From: Acholeplasmataceae bacterium
GTDB lineage: Bacteria; Bacillota_I; Bacilli_A; Acholeplasmatales; Acholeplasmataceae
Reading direction: 5' to 3'
Assembly (NCBI GenBank): GCA_030603805.1
Contig: JAUVXD010000007.1
Location: 29,251 to 93,250, forward strand
Length of the DNA stretch: 64,000 nucleotides
In this document: positions 26,287 through 62,777 of the stretch, one piece after another
Layout: the number at the start of each line of letters is the position of its first letter
Numbering within the stretch: the first letter of the stretch is position 1
The notes under the pieces: generated by a model
What the model saw: only the letters and a program-made list of their open reading frames with translations
Told to the model about the DNA's origin: nothing
Database searches by the model: none
Position numbers and translations under genes: made by a program

Positions 26287-26323
26287 AGGTTTAAGGGGAT
26301 AATTTAAAAATGAGGTGGATAAG

Positions 26324-28510
26324 ATGTATGTCATCAAGCGAAACGGTATCAAAGAACCGTTTGATTTAAACAAAATCGCCAATGCGATGCAAAAAGCTTA
26401 TCGAAGTGTGGGGCTCTCTTTTACAGATGAGGAATGCTTGAAGCAAGCAACCGAAATCACGAAGGCGTATCCAAAATATCAAGAAGTCAACATCGAAATG
26501 ATTCAAGATGATGTTGAGCTCTATCTAATGAAGAAGAAGCATTATGATGCTGCACGTTCTTATATTAAGTATAGAGAAAAACAAAAGACTGACCGTGATA
26601 ATCCATGGGCAGACAATGATGAAAGACAAGATTTAATTTTAAAGAAGTATTTAATTAATGGGGAAGATAAAAAAGACTTCATCAAACGTATTGCCTTTGG
26701 TAAATCTTCTTTAGAAAAGATTTTTAGAAGAAAAGAAGCCATTTTTGGTGGTAGAAACCTTTATGCGATTGGTAGAGAAGGTAATATTACCGGTAGTAAC
26801 TGTTATGTTGTACAAGATCCAGAAGATAGCTTAGAAAGCATTTATCGTGTGGACTACCAAATTGCTAGAACCTATAGCTATGGTGGCGGACAAGGGATGA
26901 ACCTATCTAAGATTCGTCCAAAAGGTGCGAAGGTCAATAACTCATCAAACACCACACCAGGTGTTATGGTGTTTGCAGAAAAGTATTCTCACACGACTTT
27001 AAATACACAACAAGATAATAGACGTGGTGCATTGATGCTTGTTTTAAACATCGATCATCCAGATATTATCGACTTTATTACGACCAAGCTTGACTTATCT
27101 AAAGTTAATGGTGCCAATATCTCGATTGCCATTACAGATCCTTTCATGAAGGCTGTTGAAAATGATGAACAGTGGGTCATGAATTTTGAAACGCCTTATG
27201 AAGTGATCCAAAAGAAGATGAAAGCCAGAGATTTATTAAAACTTGTGGGTTATGCAGCGCATACGATGGGTGATCCTGGGGTCATTTTCATCGACAACAT
27301 GAATAATTATCATTTCTTATCCGAATATGATGATGTTAGATTTACAGCAACCAACCCATGTGGTGAACAACCACTCATGCCTCATGGATCATGTAATTTA
27401 GGCTCTATCAACTTAAATGCATTTGTTAAAAATCCATTTACAGAAGAAGCAGTCTATGATTGGGACCGATTTGATTTTGTTGTTGGAGAAATGATTGTTG
27501 CATTAGATGATTTACTCACCATGCTTGGTGATCGTCATGCGCTTCCAGAACAAATAGAGCACGTGATTCAATACCGTGAAGTTGGACTTGGCGTGATGGG
27601 CTTAGCTGACCTAGCTTTATCACTAAGACTGAGATACGGTTCAGAAGAGTTCTTAAAATTCTTAGATCAACTGATGAGACGTATGTTAAACTCTGCAACC
27701 AAAGCTTCAGCACTTCGTGCTAAAGATTTAGGTGCATTCCCAAGATTTGATTATGGTAAAGTCTCTAAATCGAGATTCTATCAAGTCGGTATTGACCCAG
27801 ATACAGATGAACTCGTCAAAAAATATGGCATGAGAAACTCAAGACTCTTATCGATAGCACCTACAGGATCTATCTCTAACATATTAGGTGTAAGTGGCGG
27901 TGTAGAGCCATTCTTCCAAATTAATTATACACGCCGTATTGTCTCTATGTTTGATGAAGAAAAAACGATTACTATTTGGGAAAAGACACCACTTGCGCTT
28001 GCAAAGACAATGAATGTCAAACCAGAACAACTTCCAGAATGGGCTTTAGTCACCTCACAAAACATTTCATTTATGGAACGCGCACACGTGCAAGCAACCA
28101 TTCAAAAATATGTAGATACTGCGATTAGTTCTACATTCAACTTACATAATAGTGCATCTGTTGACGATGTCATGGATATTTATAAAACTGCTTGGAAGCT
28201 TGGATTTAAAGGTGCAACCGTCTTTAGAGACAGATGTGCGAAAATTGGTATTTTAGCAGGTATCAATGAAAATACCGAAGATTTAAATCCTGCAGTTCCA
28301 CCACATGTTCACGTTGAAGAAAAATGGTTCAACAAGAAAACATTAGAAACCAAAGAATATATTACACACATTTCTGTATCTTCTAGTGGACACACACCAG
28401 AGAAGATTGAAAAAGAACTTTGCCCATTATGTGGCGATGTCTTAGTTAAAAAACAAGGCTGTATTAAATGTAATAATCCAGACTGTGTTTACGAAAAATG
28501 CGCTATTTAA
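26324..28510 (+). CDS. nrdJ: Adenosylcobalamin-dependent (class II) ribonucleotide reductase
   Basis: 728 residues. An ATP-cone-like N-terminus (VIKRNGIKEPFDLNKIANAMQKA), then the reductase barrel with GREGNITGSNCYV, NSSNTTPGVM, the radical site loop ATNPCGEQPLMPHGSCNLGSINLNAF, and the phosphate-binding SIAPTGSISNILGVSGG. The C-terminus has a zinc-ribbon-like CPLCG...CIKCNNPDC. It makes deoxyribonucleotides without oxygen or a separate radical subunit, and depends on the cobalamin supply encoded at 49580-52056 and 62277. ATG 26324 is chosen over GTG 26315, which lies in the ribosome site. Confidence 0.93.
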   Translation: MYVIKRNGIKEPFDLNKIANAMQKAYRSVGLSFTDEECLKQATEITKAYPKYQEVNIEMIQDDVELYLMKKKHYDAARSYIKYREKQKTDRDNPWADNDERQDLILKKYLINGEDKKDFIKRIAFGKSSLEKIFRRKEAIFGGRNLYAIGREGNITGSNCYVVQDPEDSLESIYRVDYQIARTYSYGGGQGMNLSKIRPKGAKVNNSSNTTPGVMVFAEKYSHTTLNTQQDNRRGALMLVLNIDHPDIIDFITTKLDLSKVNGANISIAITDPFMKAVENDEQWVMNFETPYEVIQKKMKARDLLKLVGYAAHTMGDPGVIFIDNMNNYHFLSEYDDVRFTATNPCGEQPLMPHGSCNLGSINLNAFVKNPFTEEAVYDWDRFDFVVGEMIVALDDLLTMLGDRHALPEQIEHVIQYREVGLGVMGLADLALSLRLRYGSEEFLKFLDQLMRRMLNSATKASALRAKDLGAFPRFDYGKVSKSRFYQVGIDPDTDELVKKYGMRNSRLLSIAPTGSISNILGVSGGVEPFFQINYTRRIVSMFDEEKTITIWEKTPLALAKTMNVKPEQLPEWALVTSQNISFMERAHVQATIQKYVDTAISSTFNLHNSASVDDVMDIYKTAWKLGFKGATVFRDRCAKIGILAGINENTEDLNPAVPPHVHVEEKWFNKKTLETKEYITHISVSSSGHTPEKIEKELCPLCGDVLVKKQGCIKCNNPDCVYEKCAI

Positions 28511-43068: not shown

Positions 43069-43087
43069 GTTTTTAAAAGGAGCCCCT

Positions 43088-44608: not shown

Positions 44609-46632
44609 CACCAATCCAGCCGATTTCACTGCTTGATATTTTCCCAACACTCCCTAAGCAACCCGAATTTATTCAAGGCATTAGAAGAGCACCCAAAAGA
44701 GATTTGAATTTAAGTGATGAGGATATTAAACTTGCACTTAAGAATGCCTTACGTTACATACCGCGTGAGTGGCATGAGACATTAGCTTTCGAGTTTTTAG
44801 ATGAACTTCTTTCAATGGGAAGAATTTATGGATACCGATTTCGTCCTCATGGGAAGATTGTTGGAAAACCGATAGAATCCTATCAAGGAAACACCCTTGA
44901 AGGTCGGGCGTTTCAAGTGATGATAGATAACAATCTCGATTTTAATGTTGCACTTTATCCATATGAACTGGTAACCTACGGTGAAACCGGTCAGGTATGT
45001 CAAAACTGGATGCAATACCAACTCATCAAAAAATACTTAGAAATCATGCAGGACGATCAAACATTGGTGGTCATGTCTGGACATCCCCTAGGTTTATATT
45101 TATCCCATAAAGAAGCACCAAGAGTGATGGTTACCAATGGTTTAATGGTTGGAGCTTTTGATACACAAGCACATTTTCAAAGAGCACAAGCTCTAGGTGT
45201 TGCAAATTATGGACAAATGACTGCTGGAGGATGGATGTATATTGGTCCTCAAGGGATTGTCCATGGTACTTACTCAACATTACTCAATGCTGGTCGTTTG
45301 AAACTGGGCTTGAAGCATGAAGAAAATCTTGCAGGAAAACTCTTTGTTTCATCTGGTTTAGGTGGCATGAGTGGTGCTCAAGGTAAAGCTTGTGAAATCG
45401 CAGGTGGTGTTGCGATTATTGCAGAAGTTGATTTCTCGAGAATTCAAACCAGATACCAGCAAGGTTGGGTTAAAGAGATTGCAACGAAAGAAAAAGAAGC
45501 TTTCGATCTTGCCCAAAAATACTTAAATAAGAAACAACCCTATGCCATTGCGTATCACGGAAACATTGTGGATTTACTTGAGTACGCCATTTTAAACAAC
45601 ATCAAGATTGATTTATTAAGCGATCAAACATCATGTCATGCAGTCTATGAAGGTGGATATTGTCCTTCAGGTATGACTTTTGAAATGCGCACCGAACTTC
45701 TAAGAAATGATTTAAACACATTTAAAATGAAGGTCAAAGAGACCTTGATTAAGCATATTTCAGCCATTGAAAAACTGGTTCAAAAGGGGACATACTTTTT
45801 TGATTATGGAAATAGCTTTTTAAAGGCTGTTTATGATGCAGGTTATGTATCAATTTGTAAAAATCAAACAAACGATTTATCTGGGTTTATCTATCCATCT
45901 TATGTAGAAGATATTATGGGACCCATGCTTTTTGATTATGGATATGGTCCCTTCAGATGGATTTGTCTATCCGGCAATCCCAAGGATTTAGAACGCACCG
46001 ATCTAGCAGCAATGAAGATGATTGAAAATTTCAAAAGAACACAAGATTTAGATAATTACAAGTGGCTCCATGATGCGAAAAAGAATCAACTTGTGGTTGG
46101 AACTCAAGCCAGAATCTTATATCAAGATGCGTATGGTAGACTTAAGATTGCACTTAAATTTAATCAAATGGTTAGAGATCGTGAAGTCGGTCCTGTGATG
46201 CTTGGAAGAGATCACCACGATACGGGTGGAACCGATAGTCCCTTTAGAGAAACAGCCAATATTAAAGATGGATCCAATGTCATGGCAGATATGGCAACTC
46301 AAGTTGCATTAGGCAATGCAGCCAGAGGCATGAGTTTAGTCGCGCTTCATAACGGTGGTGGTGTTGGTATCGGTAAATCGATTAATGGTGGATATGGTAT
46401 GGTCTTAGATGGATCCAAACGGGTTGATGATATTTTACAAGAGGCGATGCTATTTGATGTGATGGCAGGTGTCTCAAGACGTGCATGGGCAACCAATCCC
46501 AATGCCATGGAAACCGTTCAAAAATTTAATCAAATGGACAATCATTCGATTGTAACAGAACCTTATGTTGCAGATGACTTATTGCTTGATCGAATTTTAA
46601 ATTTAAAAAAGGAGCCCAAACACCATGAATAA
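44605..46632 (+). CDS. hutU: Urocanate hydratase, long form
   Basis: 675 residues, about 120 longer than the 550-residue form of Bacillus and Pseudomonas and close to the long form of animals and some anaerobes. MSGHPLG, GGWMYIGPQGIVHGT, SSGLGGMSGAQGKACEIAGG, DQTSCHAVYEGGYCPSGM, GPMLFDYGYGPFRWICLSG and HNGGGVGIGKSINGG are the NAD-binding and active-site blocks. It hydrates urocanate to imidazolonepropionate. Confidence 0.94.
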   Translation: MTPIQPISLLDIFPTLPKQPEFIQGIRRAPKRDLNLSDEDIKLALKNALRYIPREWHETLAFEFLDELLSMGRIYGYRFRPHGKIVGKPIESYQGNTLEGRAFQVMIDNNLDFNVALYPYELVTYGETGQVCQNWMQYQLIKKYLEIMQDDQTLVVMSGHPLGLYLSHKEAPRVMVTNGLMVGAFDTQAHFQRAQALGVANYGQMTAGGWMYIGPQGIVHGTYSTLLNAGRLKLGLKHEENLAGKLFVSSGLGGMSGAQGKACEIAGGVAIIAEVDFSRIQTRYQQGWVKEIATKEKEAFDLAQKYLNKKQPYAIAYHGNIVDLLEYAILNNIKIDLLSDQTSCHAVYEGGYCPSGMTFEMRTELLRNDLNTFKMKVKETLIKHISAIEKLVQKGTYFFDYGNSFLKAVYDAGYVSICKNQTNDLSGFIYPSYVEDIMGPMLFDYGYGPFRWICLSGNPKDLERTDLAAMKMIENFKRTQDLDNYKWLHDAKKNQLVVGTQARILYQDAYGRLKIALKFNQMVRDREVGPVMLGRDHHDTGGTDSPFRETANIKDGSNVMADMATQVALGNAARGMSLVALHNGGGVGIGKSINGGYGMVLDGSKRVDDILQEAMLFDVMAGVSRRAWATNPNAMETVQKFNQMDNHSIVTEPYVADDLLLDRILNLKKEPKHHE

Positions 46633-47599
46633 AATCGTACAATGTGTCCCAAATATTTCTGAAGGCAGAAATCTTCATTTGATTGAATATATTGTTGCAC
46701 CACTTAAAGATCAAGTGGGGTTTAAGTTGATTAGTGTTGAACCTGATAAGGATTATAATCGGACAGTGATTACCTTGATTGGCGATCCGCATCAGATGAT
46801 TATGCCTCTCCTTGAATTCTTTAAACGTGCGCTTGAAAAAATTGATATGAGAAATCACCAAGGGGAACATCCACGTATGGGGGCTGTTGATGTGGTCCCA
46901 TTTATTCCCATCAGTAACGTTTCGATGGATGAGTGTGTCGAGTACGCAAAATCGCTTGCTGACCACGTTTCCTTTATGTATCAGATTCCTGTATTTCTTT
47001 ATGCGAAAGCCGCTCAAATGCCCAATAGAATTAATCTCCCAGACATTAGAAAAGGCGAGTTTGAGGGTATGGCTGAAAAGATTTTAGATAACGAATGGCA
47101 TCCAGATTATGGAAAACCAGTGATGCATCCAACCTTTGGTGTCACAGCGATTGGTGCAAGAATGCCACTGATTGCCTATAATATTGATTTAATGACAAAT
47201 GATGAAAAAATTGCGTCAAATATTGCGAAAACCATCCGTCAATCTTCAGGAGGATATCAATATATTCAAGCAGGTCCAGCAATACTCCTAGACCGAGGAC
47301 ATGTTCAAGTCACAATGAATATCTTGGATTATAAAAAGAATGCAATCTATAGAATTTATGAAACTGTATTGATGGAAGCTAAACGATATCAAGTGGAGAT
47401 CACAGGCTCTGAAGTTATTGGACTCATCCCTAAAGACGCACTTCTTGAATCCTTAAAATATTACATGCAAAGAGATCAAGTACCTTATGATAAACAGATG
47501 ACTTTAGAGACAATGGTTGCTTATGGTCAAACATACTTAAAGCTGAGAGATTTTAATATCTATAAAATGATAGAAGCAAATCTGGAGGAAAATCAATGA
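46625..47599 (+). CDS. ftcD: Glutamate formimidoyltransferase
   Basis: 324 residues, the formiminotransferase part of FTCD as a separate protein. VQCVPNISEGRN, EPDKDYNRTVITLIGDP, HQGEHPRMGAVDVVPFIP and PDYGKPVMHPTFGVTAIGARMPLIAYNI are typical. It moves the formimino group of formiminoglutamate to tetrahydrofolate, giving glutamate. It works with FchA at the end of the operon. Overlaps hutU by eight bases. Confidence 0.94.
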   Translation: MNKIVQCVPNISEGRNLHLIEYIVAPLKDQVGFKLISVEPDKDYNRTVITLIGDPHQMIMPLLEFFKRALEKIDMRNHQGEHPRMGAVDVVPFIPISNVSMDECVEYAKSLADHVSFMYQIPVFLYAKAAQMPNRINLPDIRKGEFEGMAEKILDNEWHPDYGKPVMHPTFGVTAIGARMPLIAYNIDLMTNDEKIASNIAKTIRQSSGGYQYIQAGPAILLDRGHVQVTMNILDYKKNAIYRIYETVLMEAKRYQVEITGSEVIGLIPKDALLESLKYYMQRDQVPYDKQMTLETMVAYGQTYLKLRDFNIYKMIEANLEENQ

Positions 47600-48858
47600 T
47601 CGCTGATTTAGTCGTTATCCACATTAAAACCATTTACACACCGTATCTAAAACCACCTGTTAAAGGAAAACATATGGCATCCATTCATGAAATCATGGAT
47701 GCATATATCGCTGTTAAGGATGGTCGTATTATTGATATCGGTTCAGGAAGTCCCAAAGATTTTATGGGTCCAAATACTGCTGTCTATGATGCGAAAAATC
47801 ACATTGTCATACCTGGTCTAATTGATGGACACACCCACTTAGTCCATGGAGGTTCTAGAGAGCATGAGTTTAAAATGCTCCAAGAAGGCATCCCATATTT
47901 AGAGATACTTAAACAAGGCGGCGGCATATTAAGTACAGTTGAAAAAACAAGACAAGCAACTGAAAAGGAATTGTATTTTCAAGCATTGAAGTCATTAGAT
48001 GAGATGATGCTTTATGGTGTGACATCTGTTGAATCAAAAAGTGGGTACGGACTGAATTTGGAGCATGAGATTAAACAACTCAAAGTCAATCAGCGTTTAA
48101 AAGAAAATCATCCTGTTTATATCTCATCAACTTATATGGGTGCTCATGCACTACCTTTAGAGTTTAAAGAGGATAAAGAAGCTTATATCAATCAAGTCAT
48201 CAAGGATATGAAAGAGATTAAAAAATTAGGCCTTGCAGAAGCAGTCGATGTTTTTTGTGAAACAGGTGTCTTTTCAATCGAAGAATCAAAAAAGGTCTTA
48301 AGCGAAGCGAAGGTTTTAGGATTTAAGATTAAAATGCATGCGGATGAGATCGATGCTATCGGTGGCGCTGGTCTTGGCGTTGATTTAGGATGCACATCCG
48401 TTGATCATCTCATGGCGATATCAGATGAAGATATATTGAAACTTTCAGAAAGTCATACCATTGCTAATTGTTTACCAGGCACATCATTCAACTTAAAGAA
48501 AAAGTATGCACCTGCTCGAAAAATGATTGATCAAGGTGTTGCATTAGGCATTGCGGGTGATTATAACCCAGGGTCTTGTCCATCCGAAAATTTTCAGTTG
48601 ATCATGCAACTTGCATCAAAAGAGATGCAACTTCTACCCGAAGAGGTTTTAAATGCAGTTACGATGAATGCAGCTTACCATTTAGGCATCAGCCATCTCA
48701 AAGGATCTTTAGAAGTTGGTAAGGATGCAGACTTTGTAATTATGAAAGCACCCAATTTAGCTTATCTATTTTATCATTTTGGTATTAATCATACAAAGGA
48801 TGTCTTCATTAAAGGCAAGCCTGTTGTCTTAAACAGACAGATTGTGAGGTCTATATGA
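47596..48858 (+). CDS. hutI: Imidazolonepropionase
   Basis: 420 residues, amidohydrolase superfamily. The metal motif is DGHTHLVHGGSREHEF, with KMHADEIDAIGGAGLG, SVDHLMAISDED and GIAGDYNPGSCPSENFQL further on. It opens the imidazolone ring to formiminoglutamate. It overlaps ftcD and fchA by four bases each. Confidence 0.95.
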   Translation: MIADLVVIHIKTIYTPYLKPPVKGKHMASIHEIMDAYIAVKDGRIIDIGSGSPKDFMGPNTAVYDAKNHIVIPGLIDGHTHLVHGGSREHEFKMLQEGIPYLEILKQGGGILSTVEKTRQATEKELYFQALKSLDEMMLYGVTSVESKSGYGLNLEHEIKQLKVNQRLKENHPVYISSTYMGAHALPLEFKEDKEAYINQVIKDMKEIKKLGLAEAVDVFCETGVFSIEESKKVLSEAKVLGFKIKMHADEIDAIGGAGLGVDLGCTSVDHLMAISDEDILKLSESHTIANCLPGTSFNLKKKYAPARKMIDQGVALGIAGDYNPGSCPSENFQLIMQLASKEMQLLPEEVLNAVTMNAAYHLGISHLKGSLEVGKDADFVIMKAPNLAYLFYHFGINHTKDVFIKGKPVVLNRQIVRSI

Positions 48859-49508
48859 AATTAGTCGATTTAAAAGTATTAGATTTTTTAAATGAAGTGG
48901 ATTCCAAATCACCTGCTCCAGGCGGGGGTTCAGTATCAGCACTTGTTTCGTCCTTAGGCGTATCACTTACAAGAATGGTGGGTCATCTGACCACAAGTAA
49001 GAAGAAATTTGCAAGTTTAGAAGCAGAAATTCAGTTAGAATTTCAAGATGTTATGTCTGCTCTTGATATGATTAAGCAGCAATTGATCTTAAGTATTGAT
49101 GAAGATACCAAAGCATTTAATCAGATTATGGCAGCTTATCAACTTCCAAAAGATAATGAAGAAAATCAAAAGATACGATATCAAGCAATCCAATTGGCAA
49201 CTGAAGAAGCAATTATCGTACCATTGAAGGTTGCAGCACTCTCTTTTTCTGTACTTCATCACCTACCTTTTATGATACAATATGGTAATCCTCAAGCCAT
49301 TTCTGATTTAGGTGTTGCCATGCTATCGTTGGCTACAGGCATTGAAGGTGCTTGTATGAATGTCTTAATCAATCTACCAGGCTTTGATAACAAAATTGCA
49401 GCCTCACAATACAAAAAACAAGTTGACCAACTCATTGATGATACACATCGGATTCGTGATGAGGTTCTCTCGTTAATTTATCAATCACTTAAAAAGGATG
49501 AATCCTAA
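48855..49508 (+). CDS. fchA: Formimidoyltetrahydrofolate cyclodeaminase
   Basis: 217 residues, all-helical FTCD cyclodeaminase domain as a separate protein. SPAPGGGSVSALVSSLGVSLTRMVGHLT is the N-terminal signature and IDEDTKAFNQIMAAYQLPK follows. It releases ammonia and makes 5,10-methenyl-THF, so C1 units of histidine enter the folate pool. Last gene of the operon. Confidence 0.93.
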   Translation: MKLVDLKVLDFLNEVDSKSPAPGGGSVSALVSSLGVSLTRMVGHLTTSKKKFASLEAEIQLEFQDVMSALDMIKQQLILSIDEDTKAFNQIMAAYQLPKDNEENQKIRYQAIQLATEEAIIVPLKVAALSFSVLHHLPFMIQYGNPQAISDLGVAMLSLATGIEGACMNVLINLPGFDNKIAASQYKKQVDQLIDDTHRIRDEVLSLIYQSLKKDES

Positions 49509-49537: not shown

Positions 49538-49566
49538 TTGATTAATTGGCATAAGTCCTCTATAAT
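49538..49566 (+). promoter_or_regulatory. Promoter of the cobalamin uptake operon
   Basis: TTGATT (49538-49543), 17 bases, TATAAT (49561-49566), just upstream of the riboswitch. Confidence 0.75.
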
Positions 49567-49579
49567 TAAAGTTAATTGA

Positions 49580-49813
49580 ATACGACACTATTGGTGCGAA
49601 AGCATAACAGGGAAGCAAGTTAAAATCTTGAGCTGTCCCAGCAACCGTGATACTGACGAAATGCAATAACCACTGCGTAAGCGGGAAGGTGCAAATTAGG
49701 ATGAAGTTAAGCCGGGAGACCTACCAAATGTCAAATCAAGTCATCTTCTGGGGTTGAGAAGGGCAAAAATCCTCTTTTTGTCTATTGCCATACCCCAAAA
49801 GGTATGGTTTTTT
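49580..49813 (+). promoter_or_regulatory. Cobalamin (adenosylcobalamin-class) riboswitch with terminator
   Basis: The B12 box AGCCGGGAGACCTACC (49710-49725) and the upstream conserved parts (TTGGTGCGAAAGC, ACAGGGAAGC, the CCCAGCAACCGTGAT segment, AACCACTGCG, GCGGGAAGG) are in order. The expression platform is the terminator CCATACC-CCAAAA-GGTATGG (49788-49807) with TTTTTT. TGGGGT (49749-49754) can pair with ACCCCA (49792-49797) as an antiterminator. Expected behaviour is shut-off when B12 is plentiful. It fills the 328-base gap before the next gene. Confidence 0.93.
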
Positions 49814-49836
49814 ATTTCAAAATAAGGAGAAAGTAC

Positions 49837-51039
49837 ATGAAAAAAGTATGGTTTACAGTTTTATTTTTCTTAAGTTTGATTCTGTTTGCTGGATGTCAGA
49901 CAGAAGATGTGGTTCCAACGGAACCAGAAGGTGATTTTAGTGTCACGGTTGAAGTGCTTTCATTAGAGGGTGAAAAGTTATTTGACCAGGTGATTCGATT
50001 CTTCTCAGATACAGAACAAAACTTTGTTGAAATTTTAGATGATGCCATCGATTTGGATTACACAAATTCACAATATGGCGCATTTATTACAGGTGTTGCA
50101 GGTATTTACCCCCCTGAAAATGGTGTGACGTGGAATTACTGGTTTTCTATATTAATTGATGGAGAACTTTCATGGACAGGGCTCGATACCGTTGAGGTTG
50201 AAGATGGGAAAACCATCACATTTCAAATTTCTACAATGCTCGATGAAACTGACCTTTGGGTAGACCAAGTCATCTATAGTTTTCTAGAAACAAGATTAGC
50301 ATCTTATATCAACCAAGATCAGATGCATTTCACGGTTGTGCTTGCGTTAAATAAACTTAAAAGCGCAGGATATGATGTCCCAAGTGTTTCATCATTAGCA
50401 GGCACATCACCTACACTTTTAAGAGACTCCATTTCTAATGCTTATAAAACAGCAGTCTTTGAAGTTGCACTCGGATTGAATACGGATGCAACCTTATCTT
50501 ATTTAGAAACAGCTTCAGCATCAAATCATTATGAAGCAATTTCTCAACTTTCAGCACTGACATTACTCAATAGTACACATGCTAAGGTTGATCAACTGAT
50601 TGCGATGCTTATATCAAGCACGCCAGAATATATGGATGCAGACTACGCAGGTATGGTGATTGCAGCATTATCTCATTATTCCGAAGTTGATGGTGTTCAA
50701 GCTTGGATTAACACCATGATTTTAGAGATTGAAGAAGTTTTAACGTTTGAAGGCATCACATCTTGGGGTAGTGCGAATGCAGCTTCAACAGCTCAAGCGA
50801 TATTAGGACTTGTTTCATTAGGATTAACTCCAAGAGAGGTAACTCAAACAGGTTTAGAAGTCGAATTTGATTTAATTGCGGCACTTCAAATATATGAAAC
50901 ATTATCAGGATTTAAATATACATCATCTGATTCAAATTTAGATCTAGCATTTTCAACGCCGCAAGGCTTTGCAGCTCTTGTTGTGTATAAGATATATCGA
51001 GATACATGGGGTAATCCCAAAGTAGATCTCCACAGATAG
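49837..51039 (+). CDS. Transcobalamin/intrinsic-factor-like B12-binding lipoprotein (DUF4430 plus alpha6/alpha6 domain)
   Basis: 400 residues. The lipobox LFAGC gives a lipid-anchored Cys20. Residues about 30-130 are a DUF4430-type beta domain (GVTWNYWFSILIDGELSWTGLDTVEVEDGKTITF). The rest looks like an alpha6/alpha6 barrel (repeated helices; DADYAGMVIAALSHYSE, NAASTAQAILGLVSLG). The same two folds in reverse order make up animal intrinsic factor and transcobalamin. With the B12 riboswitch upstream and the ECF S component downstream, a surface cobalamin-capture role is the best inference. The start at 49837 follows AAGGAGA; ATG 49804 lies in the terminator. Confidence 0.75.
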   Translation: MKKVWFTVLFFLSLILFAGCQTEDVVPTEPEGDFSVTVEVLSLEGEKLFDQVIRFFSDTEQNFVEILDDAIDLDYTNSQYGAFITGVAGIYPPENGVTWNYWFSILIDGELSWTGLDTVEVEDGKTITFQISTMLDETDLWVDQVIYSFLETRLASYINQDQMHFTVVLALNKLKSAGYDVPSVSSLAGTSPTLLRDSISNAYKTAVFEVALGLNTDATLSYLETASASNHYEAISQLSALTLLNSTHAKVDQLIAMLISSTPEYMDADYAGMVIAALSHYSEVDGVQAWINTMILEIEEVLTFEGITSWGSANAASTAQAILGLVSLGLTPREVTQTGLEVEFDLIAALQIYETLSGFKYTSSDSNLDLAFSTPQGFAALVVYKIYRDTWGNPKVDLHR

Positions 51040-51045
51040 GACCTT

Positions 51046-51513
51046 ATGAAACAAAATTTGATTAAAATCATCATCAGCTTCATCGCAATTATCACGATTG
51101 GTGTCATTGTTTACCAACTGATGAGACCTCATCAAGCTGAATCTGAAGGTGTCATTTACCTTTTGATTCAAGATGAAGACAATCAAATCCTCTATGATGG
51201 AGAAATCCCCTTTTTTGAAGGTGATACCTTTTATGACATCCTAGCAAGAGAGTTTTCACTCATCTGTGCGACTCAAACTTATCAAGCTGACGATACATGC
51301 GCCTATACCTTTAATACGTTTATCTATCAAGGGAAGGTCATTTTAGGGATATCAGGCAATGATTTTGAACTCCTCACCGACTGGAGTCACACATTTTTAG
51401 CTTTTGAAGTTTTAGTAGAAAACAATTATGTCCTTTCAACACAAGGACCAAGTCACCAGATTTATCAAGATCAAGACCATTTTAGAATTTCAGTAAGAAG
51501 AGTTTCGGGGTAA
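51046..51513 (+). CDS. Membrane-anchored stand-alone DUF4430-like protein
   Basis: 155 residues: one N-terminal helix (about 7-26), then an extracellular beta domain that looks like a single DUF4430 unit (EGVIYLLIQDEDNQILYDGEIPFFEGDTFYDILAREF..., HTFLAFEVLVENNYVLSTQGPSHQIYQDQDHFRISVRRV). It has two cysteines (in ICATQTYQADDTCAY) that could form a disulfide. Six bases after the B12-binding candidate, so it probably helps in cobalamin binding or hand-over. The family call is by pattern and moderate. Confidence 0.6.
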   Translation: MKQNLIKIIISFIAIITIGVIVYQLMRPHQAESEGVIYLLIQDEDNQILYDGEIPFFEGDTFYDILAREFSLICATQTYQADDTCAYTFNTFIYQGKVILGISGNDFELLTDWSHTFLAFEVLVENNYVLSTQGPSHQIYQDQDHFRISVRRVSG

Positions 51514-51519
51514 TTTGAG

Positions 51520-52056
51520 ATGAGCATGACAAAGACAACACTTAGAATTAAAGATACAGCACTTATTGCCATATGTGCGGCGATTCTTTTTGTGCAACAG
51601 TTGTCACTCTCGATGCTCCCTAATATTCAATTTACAACACTACTGATTGTTTTATTTACACGAGTTCTTGGGTTTAAAAGAACGACATTCATTATCATCA
51701 TTCATGTGATTGTCTCCAATTTCTTTTCACCTTATGGTCCAGTTAATCCGATGTATATGCCTTTTATGTTTATCGCTTGGATGCTTCTCCCCATATCACT
51801 GAAAACGATTTTTAAATCTCTTGATCATCCTTATGGGCTTGCAACATTTGGGTTTTTCTTTGGGTTTGTTTATGGTTGGATGTTTATACCGGTCTCTGTG
51901 TTTATTTTAGGCACACCATTTCTACCCTATTTAATTGCAGATCTCCCATTTGAGCTCATCATGGCACTCAGTAACTTTATAACGATTCTCTGGCTCTATC
52001 AGCCTTTAAAGAAACTTTTGACAGATCAAATGAACAAATTCATGCATATTGCTTAA
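51520..52056 (+). CDS. ECF transporter S component, probable cobalamin or precursor specificity
   Basis: 178 residues with five or six membrane helices; IKDTALIAICAAILFVQQ at the start and TFGFFFGFVYGWMFIPVSVFILG and LPFELIMALSNFITILWLYQPLKKLL are typical of S components. It needs the shared EcfT and EcfA subunits, which are not here. The riboswitch and the two surface proteins point to cobalamin or cobinamide as substrate. Start could also be ATG 51526. Confidence 0.7.
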   Translation: MSMTKTTLRIKDTALIAICAAILFVQQLSLSMLPNIQFTTLLIVLFTRVLGFKRTTFIIIIHVIVSNFFSPYGPVNPMYMPFMFIAWMLLPISLKTIFKSLDHPYGLATFGFFFGFVYGWMFIPVSVFILGTPFLPYLIADLPFELIMALSNFITILWLYQPLKKLLTDQMNKFMHIA

Positions 52057-53468: not shown

Positions 53469-53479
53469 AAATTTAGATA

Positions 53480-53677
53480 CACGATACAGAGGCGCGATAT
53501 ACTGGTATAAAGTAATGTTAAGGTGGGACAACCATGTTACTTTAGAAGGAGTATGTCGCCGAAAGAACAATTGACGTCCACAATTTTTCTTGATGATTGA
53601 GGGTACACCTCCTTCATTGCCATTTTTGAAGAAAATGGAGAGCTGTCTTTTAAGACGGCTCTATTTTATTTATTTTA
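53480..53677 (+). promoter_or_regulatory. Lysine riboswitch (L box) with terminator
   Basis: AGAGGCGCGA (53488-53497), AAGTA, and AGAAGGAGTATGTCGCCGAA further on follow the order and wording of L-box aptamers; the last stretch resembles the GGAGCGTCGCCGAAG of Bacillus lysC. A 3' GAGGGTACACC strand ends the aptamer. CCATTTT/AAAATGG (53620-53638) and a terminator stem AGAGCTGTCTT/AAGACGGCTCT (53639-53662) with a T-rich tail form the expression platform. Whether lysine turns the operon on or off is not settled by eye. It fills most of the 363-base gap. Confidence 0.82.
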
Positions 53678-53686
53678 AGGAGTGAA

Positions 53687-54109
53687 ATGATGATTCATAC
53701 CATGAAGGTCGGAGACCAAAGAAGTTACAAACGCATTATATCCAAAGAAGATGTGCAAAAATTTGCAGAACTTACAGGGGATTTTAATGAGGCACATTTT
53801 AATGAAGAGTATTGCTCTAGAACAATGTTTAAAAAACCTATTGTACACGGCATGCTCGTGGGTTCTCTTTTTTCAAAAGTTTTTGGATGTGAGTATCCAG
53901 GCGAAGGCACCATTTACTGTTCGCAATCTTTTAAGTTTATTAAACCTGTTTATCCAGATATGGAACTGACAGTTAAAATTACGGTTAAAGAAATCGTGAT
54001 TGAAAAAAATAGAGTCTTTTTTACAACAGAAATATTTGACGATGAAAATAACCTGCTTCTCACAGGAGAAGCGATGATGATGCCAAGGAAGGATACGACA
54101 CATGAATAA
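53687..54109 (+). CDS. MaoC-like hot-dog hydratase ((R)-3-hydroxyacyl-CoA dehydratase type)
   Basis: 140 residues. KFAELTGDFNEAHFNEEYC and PIVHGMLVGSLFSKVFG form the hydratase-2 motif with the catalytic Asp and His, followed by SQSFKFIKPVYPDMEL. It would interconvert crotonyl-CoA and 3-hydroxybutyryl-CoA. It leads the lysine operon, whose Kal enzyme makes crotonyl-CoA. The step is not part of the standard lysine pathway. ATG 53690 is an alternative start. Confidence 0.82.
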   Translation: MMIHTMKVGDQRSYKRIISKEDVQKFAELTGDFNEAHFNEEYCSRTMFKKPIVHGMLVGSLFSKVFGCEYPGEGTIYCSQSFKFIKPVYPDMELTVKITVKEIVIEKNRVFFTTEIFDDENNLLLTGEAMMMPRKDTTHE

Positions 54110-54755
54110 ATGGATTGAAAAAGAACAATTTAAAGGCTTACTCAAAGATAATCAAAGCATCATGATTGGTGGGTTTTTAACATGTGGGACACCAGAACTA
54201 CTCATTGATTGGGTGGTTGAATCCAATGTTAAAGGATTAACCATCTTATGTAACGATGCTGGATATCCGGATAAAGGTGTGGGTAAACTCATTAAAAACA
54301 ACCAAGTCAAGAAATTGATTGCAACACACATAGGAACAAATCCAGAAGCTGGCAAACTGATGAGCGCTGGTTTACTTGATGTAGAACTCATTCCACAAGG
54401 CACATTTATTGAACAAATTAGGGCAAAAGGTGGTGGCCTTGGTGGCGTACTCACGCCAACAGGCATTCACACACCTGCAGAAAAAGGAAATAAAATCGTG
54501 ACGTTAAGTGATGGAAAGTCTTATATTCTTGCAGAAGCGATTGGCGCTGATCTTGCATTAATTAATGCCTATAACAGCAACCATTTAGGATCACTCACTT
54601 ATTCTGGAACTGCGAGAAACTTTAATCCCGTCATGGCAACCGCAGCTGATATGGTCATTGCTGTCGTTGAACATAAAGTTGATCGTCTAGATCCAGAAGT
54701 AGTCATCACACCTCATATCTTTATTGATTATGTGGTTTTAGGAGGGCACAAATAA
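54102..54755 (+). CDS. atoD: Butyrate-acetoacetate CoA-transferase, alpha subunit
   Basis: 217 residues, family I CoA-transferase alpha. MIGGFLTCGTPELLIDWVVES, GYPDKGVGKLIKNNQVKKLIATHIGTNPEA, IPQGTFIEQIRAKGGGLGGVLTPTG and SGTARNFNPVMATAADMVI are typical. With AtoA it moves CoA from butyryl-CoA to acetoacetate, closing the lysine pathway. Overlaps the MaoC-like gene by eight bases. Confidence 0.92.
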   Translation: MNKWIEKEQFKGLLKDNQSIMIGGFLTCGTPELLIDWVVESNVKGLTILCNDAGYPDKGVGKLIKNNQVKKLIATHIGTNPEAGKLMSAGLLDVELIPQGTFIEQIRAKGGGLGGVLTPTGIHTPAEKGNKIVTLSDGKSYILAEAIGADLALINAYNSNHLGSLTYSGTARNFNPVMATAADMVIAVVEHKVDRLDPEVVITPHIFIDYVVLGGHK

Positions 54756-55402
54756 TGGATGCTAAACACATGATTGCAAAACGCATAGCTCAAGAACTGA
54801 AACCTGGAGATTTAGTAAACTTAGGCATTGGGATTCCAACCATTGTTGCTGATTATATTCCAAGAGACCTTGAAGTATATTTACAAAGTGAAAATGGCAT
54901 TATTGGATTAGGACCTCTTGCAGATGAGGCGCATATCGACTATAACCTAACGAATCCCAGTGGACAATACGCAACTGTTTTGGAACATGGTATGTTTTTT
55001 GATACCGCACTATCGTTTATGATGATTCGTGGTGGACACTTAGACTTAACTGTATTGGGTTGTCTTGAAGTCGATCAAGAAGGATCACTTGCGTCATGGA
55101 TTATTCCTGGAAAACTAGTTCCAGGCATGGGTGGGTCCATGGATTTAGTCACAGGGGCTAAAAAAGTTATTATTGCAACGACACATACCAATAAAGAAGT
55201 TTCAAAGATTAAAAAACTTTGTACATTACCCTTAACTGCATATCGTTGTGTTGACTTAATTGTGACAGAACTTGCAGTGATGGAAGTTCGATCAGATGGA
55301 CTTTACTTAATTGAAAGACATCCTGACGTTTCGATTGAAGAAATTATCAGTAAAACAGAAGCAGAACTTAAATACGACGTCGTTAAATTAATGGAGGTAT
55401 AA
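54755..55402 (+). CDS. atoA: Butyrate-acetoacetate CoA-transferase, beta subunit
   Basis: 215 residues. [30 protein letters not shown], the catalytic Glu in [11 protein letters not shown], and [47 protein letters not shown] are the beta-subunit blocks. It overlaps atoD by one base after GGAGGG. Confidence 0.93.
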
Positions 55403-55403
55403 A

Positions 55404-55796
55404 ATGAAACAAGTCACACATCATTTAAGATTATCAATGCACGATGCTCATTATGGTGGGAATTTAGTGGATGGTGCAAGAGTATTAGCGCTATTTGGTG
55501 ATGTTGCTACAGAACTCTTAATCCATATCGATGGCGATGAAGGGCTGTTTAGAGCCTATGAAAAAGTCGATTTCTTAGCACCTCTTTATGCAGGAGATTT
55601 CATTGAAGTCACTGGAGAAATCATTGCTATGGGAAACACTTCAAGAAAGATGAAGTTTGAATGTTATAAGATTATTGCATCTAGACCTGAGATCAGTGCT
55701 TCAGCATGTGATGTTTTAAAAGAAAAAATCTTGGTGACACAAGCGATTGGAACTTGTGTGACACCCAAAGAAAAACAAAGAAATCATCATGAATAA
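55404..55796 (+). CDS. kal: 3-Aminobutyryl-CoA ammonia lyase
   Basis: 130 residues, hot-dog fold. [33 protein letters not shown] and [34 protein letters not shown] agree with Kal of lysine fermenters. It removes ammonia from 3-aminobutyryl-CoA to give crotonyl-CoA. Preceded by GGAGGT and tightly linked to atoA and kce. Confidence 0.92.
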
Positions 55797-56619
55797 GCTC
55801 ATCATTACATGCGCTATTTCTGGTGCAGAAGTTACAAAAAAAGATAACCCTTTTGTTCCTTATACCATTGAAGAAACAGTTCGAGAAGCCTATGAAGCTT
55901 ATCTTGCTGGCGCTGCCATTATTCATCTACATGTTCGACATGACGATGGGACACCCACACAAAGTAAAACGCGTTATCAAGCCGTTATCGATCAAATCAA
56001 AGCGAAGTGCCCTGATGTCATTATTCAACCTTCAACAGGTGGTGCAGTAGGCATGACTAGAGATGAGCGTTTAGAACCAACTGAACTTGATATTGAGATG
56101 GCAACCTTAGATTGTGGCACGCTTAATTTTGGTGGAGATCAAATTTTTGTGAACACTGAAAATGATATCAAGTATTTTGCGAAAATCATGAAGGAAAGAA
56201 ATATTTTTCCTGAACTTGAATGCTTTGAAAAAGGTCATATTGATTTGGTTCTTCGATTAAATAAAAAAGGATTTATTCATGAACCGATGCACTTTAGTTT
56301 TGTCTTAGGTGTCAATGGTGGTATGACTGGTGAAGCCAGAGATTTTCATTTCTTAAGAGAAAGTATTCCATCACACGCTACATTTTCTGTTGCAGGTATT
56401 GGACGATATGAGTTTCCACTTGCAGAACTTGCAATTTCCTATGGCGGACATGTTCGTGTAGGGCTTGAAGATAATATCTATATTGAAAAAGGCGTGCTTG
56501 CAGAAGGCAATCAAGCACTCGTTAAAAAAGTTGTTGAGTTGGCTAAAAAATATAACCGAGAAATCGCAACCCCAGATGAAGCAAGACAAATCCTTGGGAT
56601 TGGAGGAAGTCATGAGTAA
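55789..56619 (+). CDS. kce: 3-Keto-5-aminohexanoate cleavage enzyme
   Basis: 276 residues, BKACE (DUF849) family TIM barrel. [41 protein letters not shown] (zinc His pair), [20 protein letters not shown], the conserved Glu near [10 protein letters not shown], and [17 protein letters not shown] are present. It condenses 3-keto-5-aminohexanoate with acetyl-CoA, giving acetoacetate and 3-aminobutyryl-CoA. Overlaps kal by eight bases. Confidence 0.94.
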
Positions 56620-59890: not shown

Positions 59891-59893
59891 CAT

Positions 59894-61468
59894 ATGTCTA
59901 AACTAAAACTGAACAAAGAGTTAATCAAATCCTGTAGACAATCAGCTAAGCAAATTGCAGATGATGTTCAAGAGATGATCAATAATCATTCTACAGTTAC
60001 TGTTGAAAGAACATTACTGAGACTTTTAGGTATTGATGGCACAACAAAGTTTCAAGTTCCTTATGTCAATTTGGTAGTTGATCATGTGCTTGAACATGCC
60101 AATTTAGCTAAAGGGATCTTGCATTATATGTCTTATGCAGTTCATGAACATCATCAATCACCTCAAGAAATATCAGAAGGGGTAGCATTAGGAAAAATTG
60201 ATTTATCTATTTATAAAAATCAACCTAAAAGCCCTTATTTAAGCGTTTTAAAGCCTTATATCGATCAAACACTTTCTAGAATTCAAGAAATGAAGAAAGT
60301 GCGAAAAGCTTGGATCAATCAAACAGATCAAAAGACAACGCCGAGTAAATATGTCATTGTTGCTACAGGCAATATTTATGAAGATATCAAGCAAGCAATA
60401 TCAGCAGCTAAAAAAGGTGCCGATATTATCGCAGTCATAAGGAGTACAGGACAATCATTACTAGATTATGTCCCTTTTGGTGCAACCACAGAAGGTTTCG
60501 GTGGAACCTATGCGACTCAGGAAAATTTCAGATTGATGCGTGCAGCCCTCGATTTAGTATCTAAGGAAGAAAAAAGATATATCAAACTCGTGAATTATGC
60601 TTCAGGACTTTGTATGCCTGAAATTGTGGCCATGGGTGCAATTGAACGTCTTGATATGATGCTTAATGATTCTCTTTATGGCATTATTTTTAGAGATATC
60701 AACATGAAAAGAACATTTATTGATCAATATTTTTCTAGAGTATTAAGTGCCTATTCAAATATCATCATTAACACAGGTGAAGACAATTACTTAACAACAT
60801 CGGATGCTTTTGAACATGCACACACCGTGCTTGCTTCACAGTTCATCAACGAGCAGTTTGCTAAAAATGCATGCATGGATGAATCTTTGATGGGACTTGG
60901 GCATGCTTATGAAATAGATCCCAATATGGAAAATAGCTTTTTATATGAACTTGCACAAGCAGAAATGTCAAGAGAGATTTTTCCTAAGGCGCCGCTTAAA
61001 TATATGCCGCCTACAAAGCATATGACCGGAGATATCTTTAAAGGGACAGTTCAAAATGCACTCTTTAACATAACCGCAGTTACAACCCATCAATCGATTC
61101 ATTTATTAGGTATGATGACAGAAGCGATTCACACACCATTCATCAGTGATCGCGCACTTGCTTTGGATAACGCAGCCTACATTGAAAAAGCATTTAAAGA
61201 TTTTGGCGATGAAATTGAATTTAATCCAAATGGCAAGATTGTTAAGCGTGCTCATGAGGTCTTGAATCATGCACATGAACTCCTTGAAACGATTAAGGAA
61301 GAAGGACTTTTTACTTCTTTAAGTTTAGGTCGCTTTGCAGAAATCAAGAGAGAAGCACATCGTGGCAAAGGATTATCCGGTGTCTTTAAGAAAGACCAAG
61401 ACTACCAAAATCCTATTTTAGACATACTGCTTGAAGCGCTAAAGGAGGAAAATCATGACAACAAATAA
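59894..61468 (+). CDS. kamD: Lysine 5,6-aminomutase, alpha subunit
   Basis: 524 residues. The large TIM-barrel subunit that binds adenosylcobalamin's Ado group and PLP at the subunit interface; AISAAKKGADIIAVIRSTGQSLLDYVPFGATTEGFGGTYATQENFRLMRAALD and MLNDSLYGIIFRDINMKRTFIDQYFSR are highly typical. It moves the terminal amino group of beta-lysine to give 3,5-diaminohexanoate. GGAGTAA precedes it; overlaps kamE by 14 bases. Confidence 0.95.
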   Translation: MSKLKLNKELIKSCRQSAKQIADDVQEMINNHSTVTVERTLLRLLGIDGTTKFQVPYVNLVVDHVLEHANLAKGILHYMSYAVHEHHQSPQEISEGVALGKIDLSIYKNQPKSPYLSVLKPYIDQTLSRIQEMKKVRKAWINQTDQKTTPSKYVIVATGNIYEDIKQAISAAKKGADIIAVIRSTGQSLLDYVPFGATTEGFGGTYATQENFRLMRAALDLVSKEEKRYIKLVNYASGLCMPEIVAMGAIERLDMMLNDSLYGIIFRDINMKRTFIDQYFSRVLSAYSNIIINTGEDNYLTTSDAFEHAHTVLASQFINEQFAKNACMDESLMGLGHAYEIDPNMENSFLYELAQAEMSREIFPKAPLKYMPPTKHMTGDIFKGTVQNALFNITAVTTHQSIHLLGMMTEAIHTPFISDRALALDNAAYIEKAFKDFGDEIEFNPNGKIVKRAHEVLNHAHELLETIKEEGLFTSLSLGRFAEIKREAHRGKGLSGVFKKDQDYQNPILDILLEALKEENHDNK

Positions 61469-62216
61469 ACAGATGATTAGACCTTATGGCGATACGCTCA
61501 ATGACGGTAAAGTGCAACTCAGTATGAGTTTACCCATGCCTTGTGGTCCTCTTGGAGAAGAAGCTGCAAAGCAAATGGCTTTAAAAATGGGTCTACACGA
61601 TCCGCAAGTTGTTCATAGTACACCTTTATCCGATGATTTTAGCTTCTATATTATCTATGGTACTTCAGAACATCAAGTCGATATTTCTAAACTTCACGTT
61701 GTTGATGTAGGTTCAAAATCGATGAGTAAAGAAGAAGTTGAAACCTTTATTGAAACACATTTTCGTGAACCTTTGGTTTTTATTGGTGCTTCAACCGGAA
61801 CAGATGCACACACTGTAGGAATTGATGCAATCATGAATATGAAAGGCTATAACGGAAACTATGGACTAGAACGCTATAAGGGGATTGTTGCGATTAACTT
61901 AGGGGGACAAGTCGATAATGAAGCACTTCTAGAAGCGGCAATTTCTTATAAGGCAGACGTTATATTAATCAGTCAAACCGTGACACAAAAAGATGTTCAT
62001 ATTCAAAATTTAACTTCATTTATTGAACTTCTTGAAGCTGAAAACAAACGTCAAGATTTTGTCGTGATTATTGGTGGCGCGAGAATTCATCATGCACTTG
62101 CTAAAGAGCTGGGTTATGATGCAGGATTTGGACCTAAAAAGTACGCATTTGATGTGGCAAGCTTTGCTGTTGAGAAGCTTAAAGAAAAAGGTATTAAGCT
62201 CAAAGAAAAACTTTGA
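61455..62216 (+). CDS. kamE: Lysine 5,6-aminomutase, beta subunit
   Basis: 253 residues. The base-off cobalamin motif Asp-x-His-x-x-Gly is in GTDAHTVGIDAIMNMKGYNGNYGLERY (Asp117, His119), followed by the Rossmann-type B12 domain (VAINLGGQVDNEALLEAA, VILISQTVTQKDVHIQNL, VVIIGGARIHHALAKELGYDAGFGP). Works with KamD. Last gene of the lysine operon. Confidence 0.95.
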   Translation: MTTNKQMIRPYGDTLNDGKVQLSMSLPMPCGPLGEEAAKQMALKMGLHDPQVVHSTPLSDDFSFYIIYGTSEHQVDISKLHVVDVGSKSMSKEEVETFIETHFREPLVFIGASTGTDAHTVGIDAIMNMKGYNGNYGLERYKGIVAINLGGQVDNEALLEAAISYKADVILISQTVTQKDVHIQNLTSFIELLEAENKRQDFVVIIGGARIHHALAKELGYDAGFGPKKYAFDVASFAVEKLKEKGIKLKEKL

Positions 62217-62276
62217 TATGAGTCTCTGTGGTAAAATATAAGTAGATAACATATCATATTTAAGGAGATTGAAGCG

Positions 62277-62777
62277 ATGAAAATTTATACTAAAAGAGGC
62301 GACCAAGGACAAACAGATTTAATGTCAAAACGCGTTAGTAAGGCAGATTTACATATTTCAGTCAATGGTGCATTTGATGAATCCATGGCATTTATCATCA
62401 TGTCAAAACACTACATACGACTTCAAGAAATCCATCAAGAATTAGACCAAATTCATGGACATCTCTTTTCGATATGCCACGAAATCGCACTCAATCGTGA
62501 AGATAAATATATCACGCAACCTGGGGATGTTTCATGGCTTGAATCTAGATTAGACCATTATGATTCATTCTTAAAACCGTTAACTAAATTTATTAAGCTT
62601 GATCAAACGAAAGCTGCTTCATGGTTAAACCTTGCTAGAGTTACGGTAAGACGTGCAGAAAGAGAACTCATTTTACTTTCACAAGAACAACCACTTAACC
62701 CACATACATTGCAATATGTCAATAGGTTATCTGATTTTCTATTTACCCTAGCAAGATATTTCGATGAAGTTCAATAA
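62277..62777 (+). CDS. PduO-type cob(I)alamin adenosyltransferase
   Basis: 166 residues, trimeric all-helical ATR. KIYTKRGDQGQTDLM binds ATP, ARVTVRRAERELILL and LQYVNRLSDFLFTLARYFDE are the other signatures. It makes adenosylcobalamin for KamDE and NrdJ. The N-terminal region is slightly divergent (lacks the usual R-V-x-K/G-D stretch). AAGGAG lies nine bases before the ATG. A 60-base gap with a possible weak promoter separates it from kamE. Confidence 0.9.
   Translation: MKIYTKRGDQGQTDLMSKRVSKADLHISVNGAFDESMAFIIMSKHYIRLQEIHQELDQIHGHLFSICHEIALNREDKYITQPGDVSWLESRLDHYDSFLKPLTKFIKLDQTKAASWLNLARVTVRRAERELILLSQEQPLNPHTLQYVNRLSDFLFTLARYFDEVQ

What the first reader, a model, noticed from the sequence alone, without database searches (positions are those of the whole stretch)
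49538..52056. Riboswitch-controlled, transcobalamin-like surface system for B12 capture
A cobalamin riboswitch controls three genes only: a lipoprotein with a DUF4430 beta domain plus an alpha6/alpha6-type domain, a stand-alone anchored DUF4430 protein, and an ECF-type S component. The two folds of the lipoprotein are those of animal intrinsic factor and transcobalamin, in swapped order. No BtuFCD is present. This looks like an alternative cobalamin uptake route: capture by the lipoprotein, hand-over by the small protein, transport by an ECF module.
Basis: partly seen in the sequence, partly recalled or inferred. Interest (0 to 1): 0.75.

Follow-up and report, generated by a model that had tools for sequence, protein, structure and literature searches.

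The report
Transcobalamin-like B12 capture-and-import cassette
An RNA element of the vitamin-B12-sensing riboswitch family precedes three genes in this bacterium: two encode proteins predicted to sit on the membrane and to share the fold of the human B12 carrier transcobalamin, and the third encodes a relative of a known B12 transporter part, so together they likely catch B12 outside the cell and pass it in.

Summary
A cobalamin riboswitch (49575-49742, 79 bits, the only one found in the genome) precedes three genes. The lipoprotein (49837-51039) models confidently as a transcobalamin-type beta domain plus alpha/alpha barrel. The small protein (51046-51513) models as an anchored transcobalamin beta domain. 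The third (51520-52056) is an ECF S component whose family profile hits one solved structure: CbrT of the proven B12 transporter ECF-CbrT. The genome has one shared ECF module and no BtuC, BtuF or CbiD match above cut-off; the window holds three B12-related enzymes. The cassette is conserved: 49 of 50 named loci carry the riboswitch 0.4-2.0 kb upstream of S (the 50th locus begins inside S), and a beta-domain gene adjoins S in 78 of 78 loci of two overlapping samples and 10 of 11 odd cases. The concept is not new: such fusions, in both orders, were predicted to scavenge B12 in 2007, and CbrT was characterised in 2018. New here: a constant pairing of a transcobalamin beta-domain protein with a CbrT-like S component under a B12 riboswitch, and six loci where toroid and beta domain sit on separate proteins. 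Binding and hand-over are untested.

The parts
49538..49566 (+). Promoter-like site TTGATT-17-TATAAT in front of the riboswitch
   Evidence: Consensus scan, (10 of 12 matches; the region holds 7 such sites against 9.0 in shuffles, so a scan match only)
49575..49742 (+). Cobalamin riboswitch aptamer (RF00174)
   Evidence: 79.3 bits, model positions 1-189 of 189; only one found in the genome
49743..49803 (+). Competing stem (AUCUU-C-UGGGGUUG with ...ACCCC...AAGGU), a likely antiterminator
   Evidence: Minimum-free-energy folds of the platform (z -1.96) and of the leader to 49800 (z 0.07, so the whole leader folds no better than shuffles); it uses bases of both terminator arms, so both stems cannot form at once
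49787..49808 (+). Terminator-like hairpin followed by TTTTTATTT, upstream of the first gene
   Evidence: 4 such sites in the region, both strands, against 1.3 in shuffles
49837..51039 (+). Lipoprotein, 400 aa: signal peptide with lipobox (Cys 20), transcobalamin-type beta domain (about 34-134), alpha/alpha barrel (136-393). Start at 49837 preferred over the ATG at 49804 because AAGGAG precedes it
   Evidence: lipobox-like pattern in 36 of 36 aligned relatives
51046..51513 (+). Small anchored protein, 155 aa: N-terminal hydrophobic helix (2-26) and one transcobalamin-type beta domain with a Cys pair (C74, C85)
51520..52056 (+). ECF transporter S component of the CbrT kind, 178 aa
52057..52081 (+). 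Hairpin AAAAAGACCTT-GCT-AAGGTCTTTTT directly after the S gene, likely operon end
   Evidence: Read from the sequence; not listed by the scan
26315..28510 (+). Adenosylcobalamin-dependent ribonucleotide reductase NrdJ (user of B12)
   Evidence: TIGR02504, 444.5 bits, cut-off 399.95
59894..62216 (+). Lysine 5,6-aminomutase, alpha and beta subunits (B12-dependent)
   Evidence: NF052384 836.7 bits (cut-off 600) and NF052385 358 bits (cut-off 280)
62277..62777 (+). PduO-type cob(I)alamin adenosyltransferase
   Evidence: TIGR00636, 134.5 bits, cut-off 108.45

Best explanation
The locus is a cobalamin riboswitch followed by genes for two proteins predicted to be membrane-anchored and to have transcobalamin folds and for a CbrT-like ECF S component, and it likely works as a B12 uptake system in which the two surface proteins capture the corrinoid and would hand it to the S component for ATP-driven import. 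Shown directly: the riboswitch match, the gene order, the lipobox, the sequence kinship of the S component with CbrT, one shared ECF module elsewhere in the genome, and conservation of the cassette. Predicted by models: a beta domain plus alpha/alpha barrel in the lipoprotein, and an anchored beta domain in the small protein. Inferred: the barrel and a beta domain close over one B12 molecule as in transcobalamin; the small anchored beta protein stands next to the S component and guides hand-over; the S component then docks on the general EcfA-EcfA'-EcfT module. When internal cobalamin is high, the riboswitch would let the terminator at 49787-49808 form and switch the genes off. The imported corrinoid would be adenosylated by PduO and used by lysine 5,6-aminomutase and NrdJ.
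Confidence: 0.72

Rival explanations
1. The cassette takes up a corrinoid precursor or a wider set of corrinoids (cobinamide, other cobamides) rather than B12 itself; the surface proteins set the corrinoid preference. This overlaps with the best explanation.
For: CbrT also imports cobinamide (PMC5997447); cobalamin riboswitches respond to several corrinoids (PMC9600662, search listing only). One review lists cbrUVT as cobyrinate diamide uptake (PMC8123684, passages).
Against: No CbiD in the genome; salvage genes such as CobS, CobU or CbiP were not searched, so precursor use is open.
Confidence: 0.4
2. The S component alone does the transport; the DUF4430 proteins are scavenging reservoirs or stick to B12 carriers of other organisms, without handing the ligand over.
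For: Heterologous ECF-CbrT works in E. coli without BtuF or such partners (PMC5997447). One locus has S without a beta gene (L088).
Against: A beta-domain gene directly adjoins S in 30 of 30 class loci, 48 of 48 named loci and 10 of 11 further loci, also in loci where no riboswitch is found (L087, L089, L095, L096), which argues for a working link between the two.
Confidence: 0.25
3. The DUF4430 proteins bind cobalt or another metal, as the PDB title of the R. gnavus relative suggests ('putative metal binding protein').
For: 3u7z is the best fold match and bears that name; nickel/cobalt transporter operons can also stand behind B12 riboswitches (PMC2667541, passages).
Against: No CbiD and a single EcfT in the genome, so cobalt for corrin synthesis has no evident use; the only solved structure hit by the S component's family profile is CbrT.
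Confidence: 0.05
4. The first two genes encode only co-regulated surface proteins (adhesins or wall tethers) with no part in uptake.
For: Alpha/alpha barrel folds occur in many enzymes; a DUF4430 lipoprotein behind a riboswitch can stand without an S gene nearby (L097, 3.2 kb read).
Against: Constant adjacency to the S gene and fold match to two-domain B12 carriers.
Confidence: 0.07

Closest known systems
Transcobalamin-like SLBB proteins with alpha/alpha toroid (Burroughs et al. 2007, PMC1796856; passages and section 7 part 1 seen)
   Same: Secreted beta-grasp (DUF4430-type) plus toroid; both domain orders known, including toroid C-terminal in Bacillus; paralogous SLBB proteins in one operon; predicted B12 scavenging
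   Different: That paper reports operons with CbiO/CbiQ-like genes and does not use the word riboswitch (0 occurrences); here the partner is a lone CbrT-like S component behind a cobalamin riboswitch, and in six loci toroid and beta domain are on separate proteins
ECF-CbrT of Lactobacillus delbrueckii (Santos et al. 2018, PMC5997447; passages and Discussion seen)
   Same: S component related by profile, shared ECF module, no BtuCDF; its cluster there is nrdJ-cbrS-cbrT-pduO, and this window also holds nrdJ and pduO, though not next to the S gene
   Different: The word lipoprotein does not occur in that paper and no surface partner of CbrT appeared in what I saw of it; what cbrS encodes was not resolved here
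Animal transcobalamin, haptocorrin and intrinsic factor
   Same: Toroid and beta domain; close fold match of the beta domains
   Different: Domain order reversed; membrane-anchored; delivery to an ABC-type importer instead of endocytosis (the last from general knowledge)
Surface B12-binding lipoproteins of Bacteroides (PMC6143338, search listing only)
   Same: Surface lipoprotein that captures B12 for an importer
   Different: Other fold (recalled) and an outer-membrane system
BtuFCD
   Same: Function: high-affinity capture, then ATP-driven import
   Different: Neither the BtuC nor the BtuF family has a match above cut-off in this genome

Membership tests
CbrT-type ECF S component | Sequence kinship with CbrT | tested here: met
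   Profile of 37 homologues against PDB chain sequences: only 6fnp_A at E<=10, E 1.8e-5, positions 3-166 to 7-175; moderate score
CbrT-type ECF S component | ECF_trnsprt (PF12822) kinship | tested here: inconclusive
   Window protein E 0.0031, under the cut-off; 15 of 37 family members match at E<=0.01
CbrT-type ECF S component | Group II: no own ATPase/T genes beside it, one shared module in the genome | tested here: met
CbrT-type ECF S component | High-affinity cobalamin binding and ATP-dependent transport | not testable with these tools
   Needs purified protein
Transcobalamin-like SLBB (DUF4430) clade | DUF4430 / beta-grasp domain, lipoprotein | tested here: met
   PF14478 30.3 bits, cut-off 23.8; fold match to 5no0
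Transcobalamin-like SLBB (DUF4430) clade | DUF4430 / beta-grasp domain, small protein | tested here: met
Transcobalamin-like SLBB (DUF4430) clade | Beta-hairpin insert after the core helix that touches the ligand | tested here: inconclusive
   Strands follow the helix in both models, but no coordinates were compared
Transcobalamin / intrinsic factor (animal two-domain carriers) | Alpha/alpha barrel | tested here: met
Transcobalamin / intrinsic factor (animal two-domain carriers) | Order toroid then beta domain | tested here: not met
   Here the beta domain comes first; therefore not filed as a member
Transcobalamin / intrinsic factor (animal two-domain carriers) | Cobalamin bound between the domains | not testable with these tools
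   No ligand docking or coordinates at hand
BtuFCD importer | BtuC (PF01032) and BtuF (PF01497) homologues | tested here: not met
   BtuC family: one 19.2-bit fragment in a frame with 7 stops, under cut-off; BtuF family: none; BtuD not searched
Cobalamin riboswitch RF00174 | Score over gathering threshold with full model | tested here: met
   79.3 bits, positions 1-189 of 189

The most novel reading that the evidence does not exclude
These bacteria run an ECF transporter fed by dedicated surface binding proteins, and the feeder is a two-part transcobalamin: a lipid-anchored toroid and a membrane-anchored beta domain close around one B12 molecule and open again at the CbrT-like S component. The six loci in which the toroid protein has no beta domain of its own, so that the anchored neighbour must supply it, would be the split form of the clamp that animals carry as one chain.
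Probability: 0.35. Interest if true: 0.75.

Novelty: new variant of a known kind. Interest (0 to 1): 0.57.

Why it matters
In ECF transporters the S component itself is taken to be the substrate-binding protein (as PMC5997447 puts it). A conserved set of surface proteins with transcobalamin folds that travels with a CbrT-like S component suggests a class of ECF systems with dedicated substrate donors. [quoted passage not shown]

Tried and rejected
Single-sequence PDB search of the lipoprotein gave only a zinc-ATPase hit at E 0.0062, residues 194-262, and the family profile gave a signal-peptide match at E 0.025 and weaker hits; set aside because the predicted fold explains the region. NCBIfam gave nothing useful for the three proteins or for the short-form small proteins. 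The PDB search with the long-form small-protein profile gave one hit at E 0.58; with the short-form profile 3u7z at E 0.0086 and transcobalamin-1 at 0.095, mixed with unrelated hits. Transcobalamin and intrinsic factor were not among the 50 rows listed for the barrel, which does not exclude them. The phylum search for DUF4430 (40 of 245 genomes) and RF00174 (60 of 245) listed only genomes of the same class or nearer, so it did not widen the survey; no co-location was computed from it. The literature search for CbrS returned 988 papers, the 20 listed being on other meanings, so the neighbour cbrS in L. delbrueckii stays unresolved. Six papers hold DUF4430, of which one, by its title, concerns B12 binders (vertebrates; passage seen). 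None of the titles and abstract starts listed describes DUF4430 proteins as partners of CbrT behind a riboswitch; those papers were not read through. Rodionov et al. 2009 was not read. A narrow pattern for the B12 box matched 21 of 49 mapped riboswitches; the pattern was too strict, since 24 of 25 loci re-scanned with the full model were confirmed at the mapped places and the 25th, L054, had not been mapped. Cobalt binding was considered and judged unlikely.

Full report
What is there. Between 49538 and 52081 the window holds a promoter-like site, a cobalamin riboswitch (RF00174, 49575-49742, 79.3 bits), a terminator-like hairpin before the first gene (49787-49808), and three genes on the + strand, followed by a hairpin with a T run read from the sequence and an ORF on the other strand. 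The minimum-energy fold of the expression platform pairs AUCUU-C-UGGGGUUG with the stretch ACCCC...AAGGU, which uses bases of both terminator arms (z -1.96; the longer leader folds no better than shuffles, z 0.07). That is the layout of a switch that works by termination; the step itself is inferred. It is the only RF00174 match found in the genome.

Third gene, 51520-52056. It encodes a 178-residue hydrophobic protein with a weak ECF_trnsprt match (E 0.0031; 15 of 37 family members match at E<=0.01). A profile of the family hits one solved structure only, 6fnp chain A, over nearly the full length at E 1.8e-5. 6FNP is ECF-CbrT, shown to transport cobalamin and cobinamide (PMC5997447; passages and Discussion seen).

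The genome around it. One EcfT gene is present, beside EcfA1 (TIGR04520) and EcfA2 (TIGR04521) and next to truA: a general, shared ECF module. BtuF's family has no match; BtuC's family gives only a 19.2-bit fragment in a frame with seven stops; CbiD has no match. BtuD and salvage genes were not searched. B12-related enzymes lie in the window itself: NrdJ, lysine 5,6-aminomutase and a PduO-type adenosyltransferase, all above their cut-offs. So the cell likely needs B12, does not make the corrin ring by the CbiD route, and has no BtuC-BtuF system by these models.

Conservation, named loci. A scan of genome contigs (84,980 species) with one peptide pattern of the S-component alignment gave 50 confirmed loci, mainly titled Acholeplasmataceae, Tenericutes or Izimaplasma/Izemoplasma. 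The genomes of 49 of the 50 hold RF00174. Placed on the loci by contig position, the riboswitch lies upstream of S on the same strand in 49, at 417-2036 nt; the remaining locus, L054, begins inside S, and its genome shows no RF00174. A direct scan of 25 of the 50 loci, L054 included, found it at the mapped place in 24 and none in L054. Distances fall into two classes because there are two forms: a short one, riboswitch, beta-domain gene, S (13 loci), and a long one with a toroid-bearing gene in front (36 loci). A beta-domain gene adjoins S in 48 of 48 loci counted (L059 dropped because S runs into the contig end, L054 not entered). Part of this is circular, because the profiles were built in part from these same neighbours; but with profiles made before those loci were read, an adjacent gene already matched in 46 of 49 (some weakly), L064's neighbour matches Pfam DUF4430 (26.1 bits), and the neighbours in L076 and L080 match a profile that does not contain them.

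Conservation, class sample. Among 296 genomes of the class, 93 have an S match, 107 the riboswitch and 92 a match to the lipoprotein profile, some of it to the signal peptide only. The riboswitch list shown stops at 150 places, so the following are lower bounds. Of 64 S matches with E below 1e-30 (the window's own included), 55 have a listed riboswitch within 4 kb upstream on the same strand; a rough chance figure is 0.2% each. Of the nine without, one (G057) is probably a contig break, since the riboswitch and the start of a lipoprotein sit at another contig's end. For S matches of 1e-30 to 1e-10 it is 13 of 17, and for weaker ones 4 of 13. Of the 99 lipoprotein-profile matches with E up to 6.4e-6, 5 signal-peptide-only hits were dropped; 84 of the other 94 lie within 5.5 kb downstream of a listed riboswitch, and 38 of the 40 that reach into the toroid. 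The ten exceptions are in G060 (contig 50), G009 (two), G262, G145, G081, G004, G096, G089 and G072; those in G009, G004, G096 and G089 adjoin an S gene. In the 30 best class loci, the window's own among them, a beta gene adjoins S in 30 of 30; in 11 further loci chosen mostly as odd cases, in 10 of 11, the miss being L088 (G103). Some class genomes appear to be the same as named-locus genomes.

Variants. In six loci (L038, L067, L090, L091, L092, L093) the front gene encodes a lipoprotein of 280-305 residues with the toroid only, and the nearby beta domain is on the anchored neighbour. By their group labels and look these are perhaps three lineages (L090-L092 share one family label). In one locus (L098) the front lipoprotein has three beta-domain matches and no toroid match. 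In the long form the small protein shows no lipobox (0 of 41), while in the short form 10 of 11 do, so both forms appear to include a lipoprotein. The common core is beta-domain protein plus S component.

How it likely works. The lipoprotein and the anchored beta protein capture the corrinoid outside the membrane, with the toroid and a beta domain enclosing it as transcobalamin does; the anchored protein passes it to the CbrT-like S component, which docks on the shared ECF module. Capture and hand-over are inference. The split loci are the best hint that toroid and neighbouring beta domain act together.

Relation to the known. Burroughs et al. 2007 (PMC1796856; passages, and section 7 part 1; [quoted passage not shown] Santos et al. 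2018 characterised CbrT. The system is therefore a new variant of a known kind, not a new kind. The pairing of these proteins with a CbrT-like S component behind a cobalamin riboswitch did not appear in the search listings, which cover open-licence papers only.

Noticed in passing
window 53479-62777: A lysine riboswitch (RF00168, 78.1 bits) precedes genes for lysine fermentation: 3-oxoacid CoA-transferase, lysine 2,3- and 5,6-aminomutase, reactivase KamB, and PduO. A lysine riboswitch also follows the cassette in L039 and L045.
   Followed up: partly
window 43052-49508: Histidine-degradation genes lie directly upstream (FTCD_C by Pfam; the others named by eye). Relatives of the last two (FTCD_C-like and HutI-like) are found in 17 and 16 of the 50 named loci, so the neighbourhood is partly conserved.
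   Followed up: partly
L038, L067, L090, L091, L092, L093: Toroid-only lipoproteins next to an anchored beta-domain protein: a natural split of the two-domain carrier.
   Followed up: partly
L098:599-2494 and L097:658-1692: Lipoproteins with three beta-domain matches in a row and no toroid match; L097 lies behind a cobalamin riboswitch (G040 contig 61) but has no S match in the 3.2 kb held.
   Followed up: no
G196, G210 and G134: Weaker S-component matches in frames interrupted only by TGA codons, as in genomes that read TGA as Trp; G210 and G134 have a cobalamin riboswitch about 0.7 kb upstream.
   Followed up: no
L094:1563-2939: A second toroid lipoprotein in G060 without a riboswitch or S gene in the 6 kb read, between genes resembling rpsD and a cystathionine-type enzyme (by eye).
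   Followed up: no
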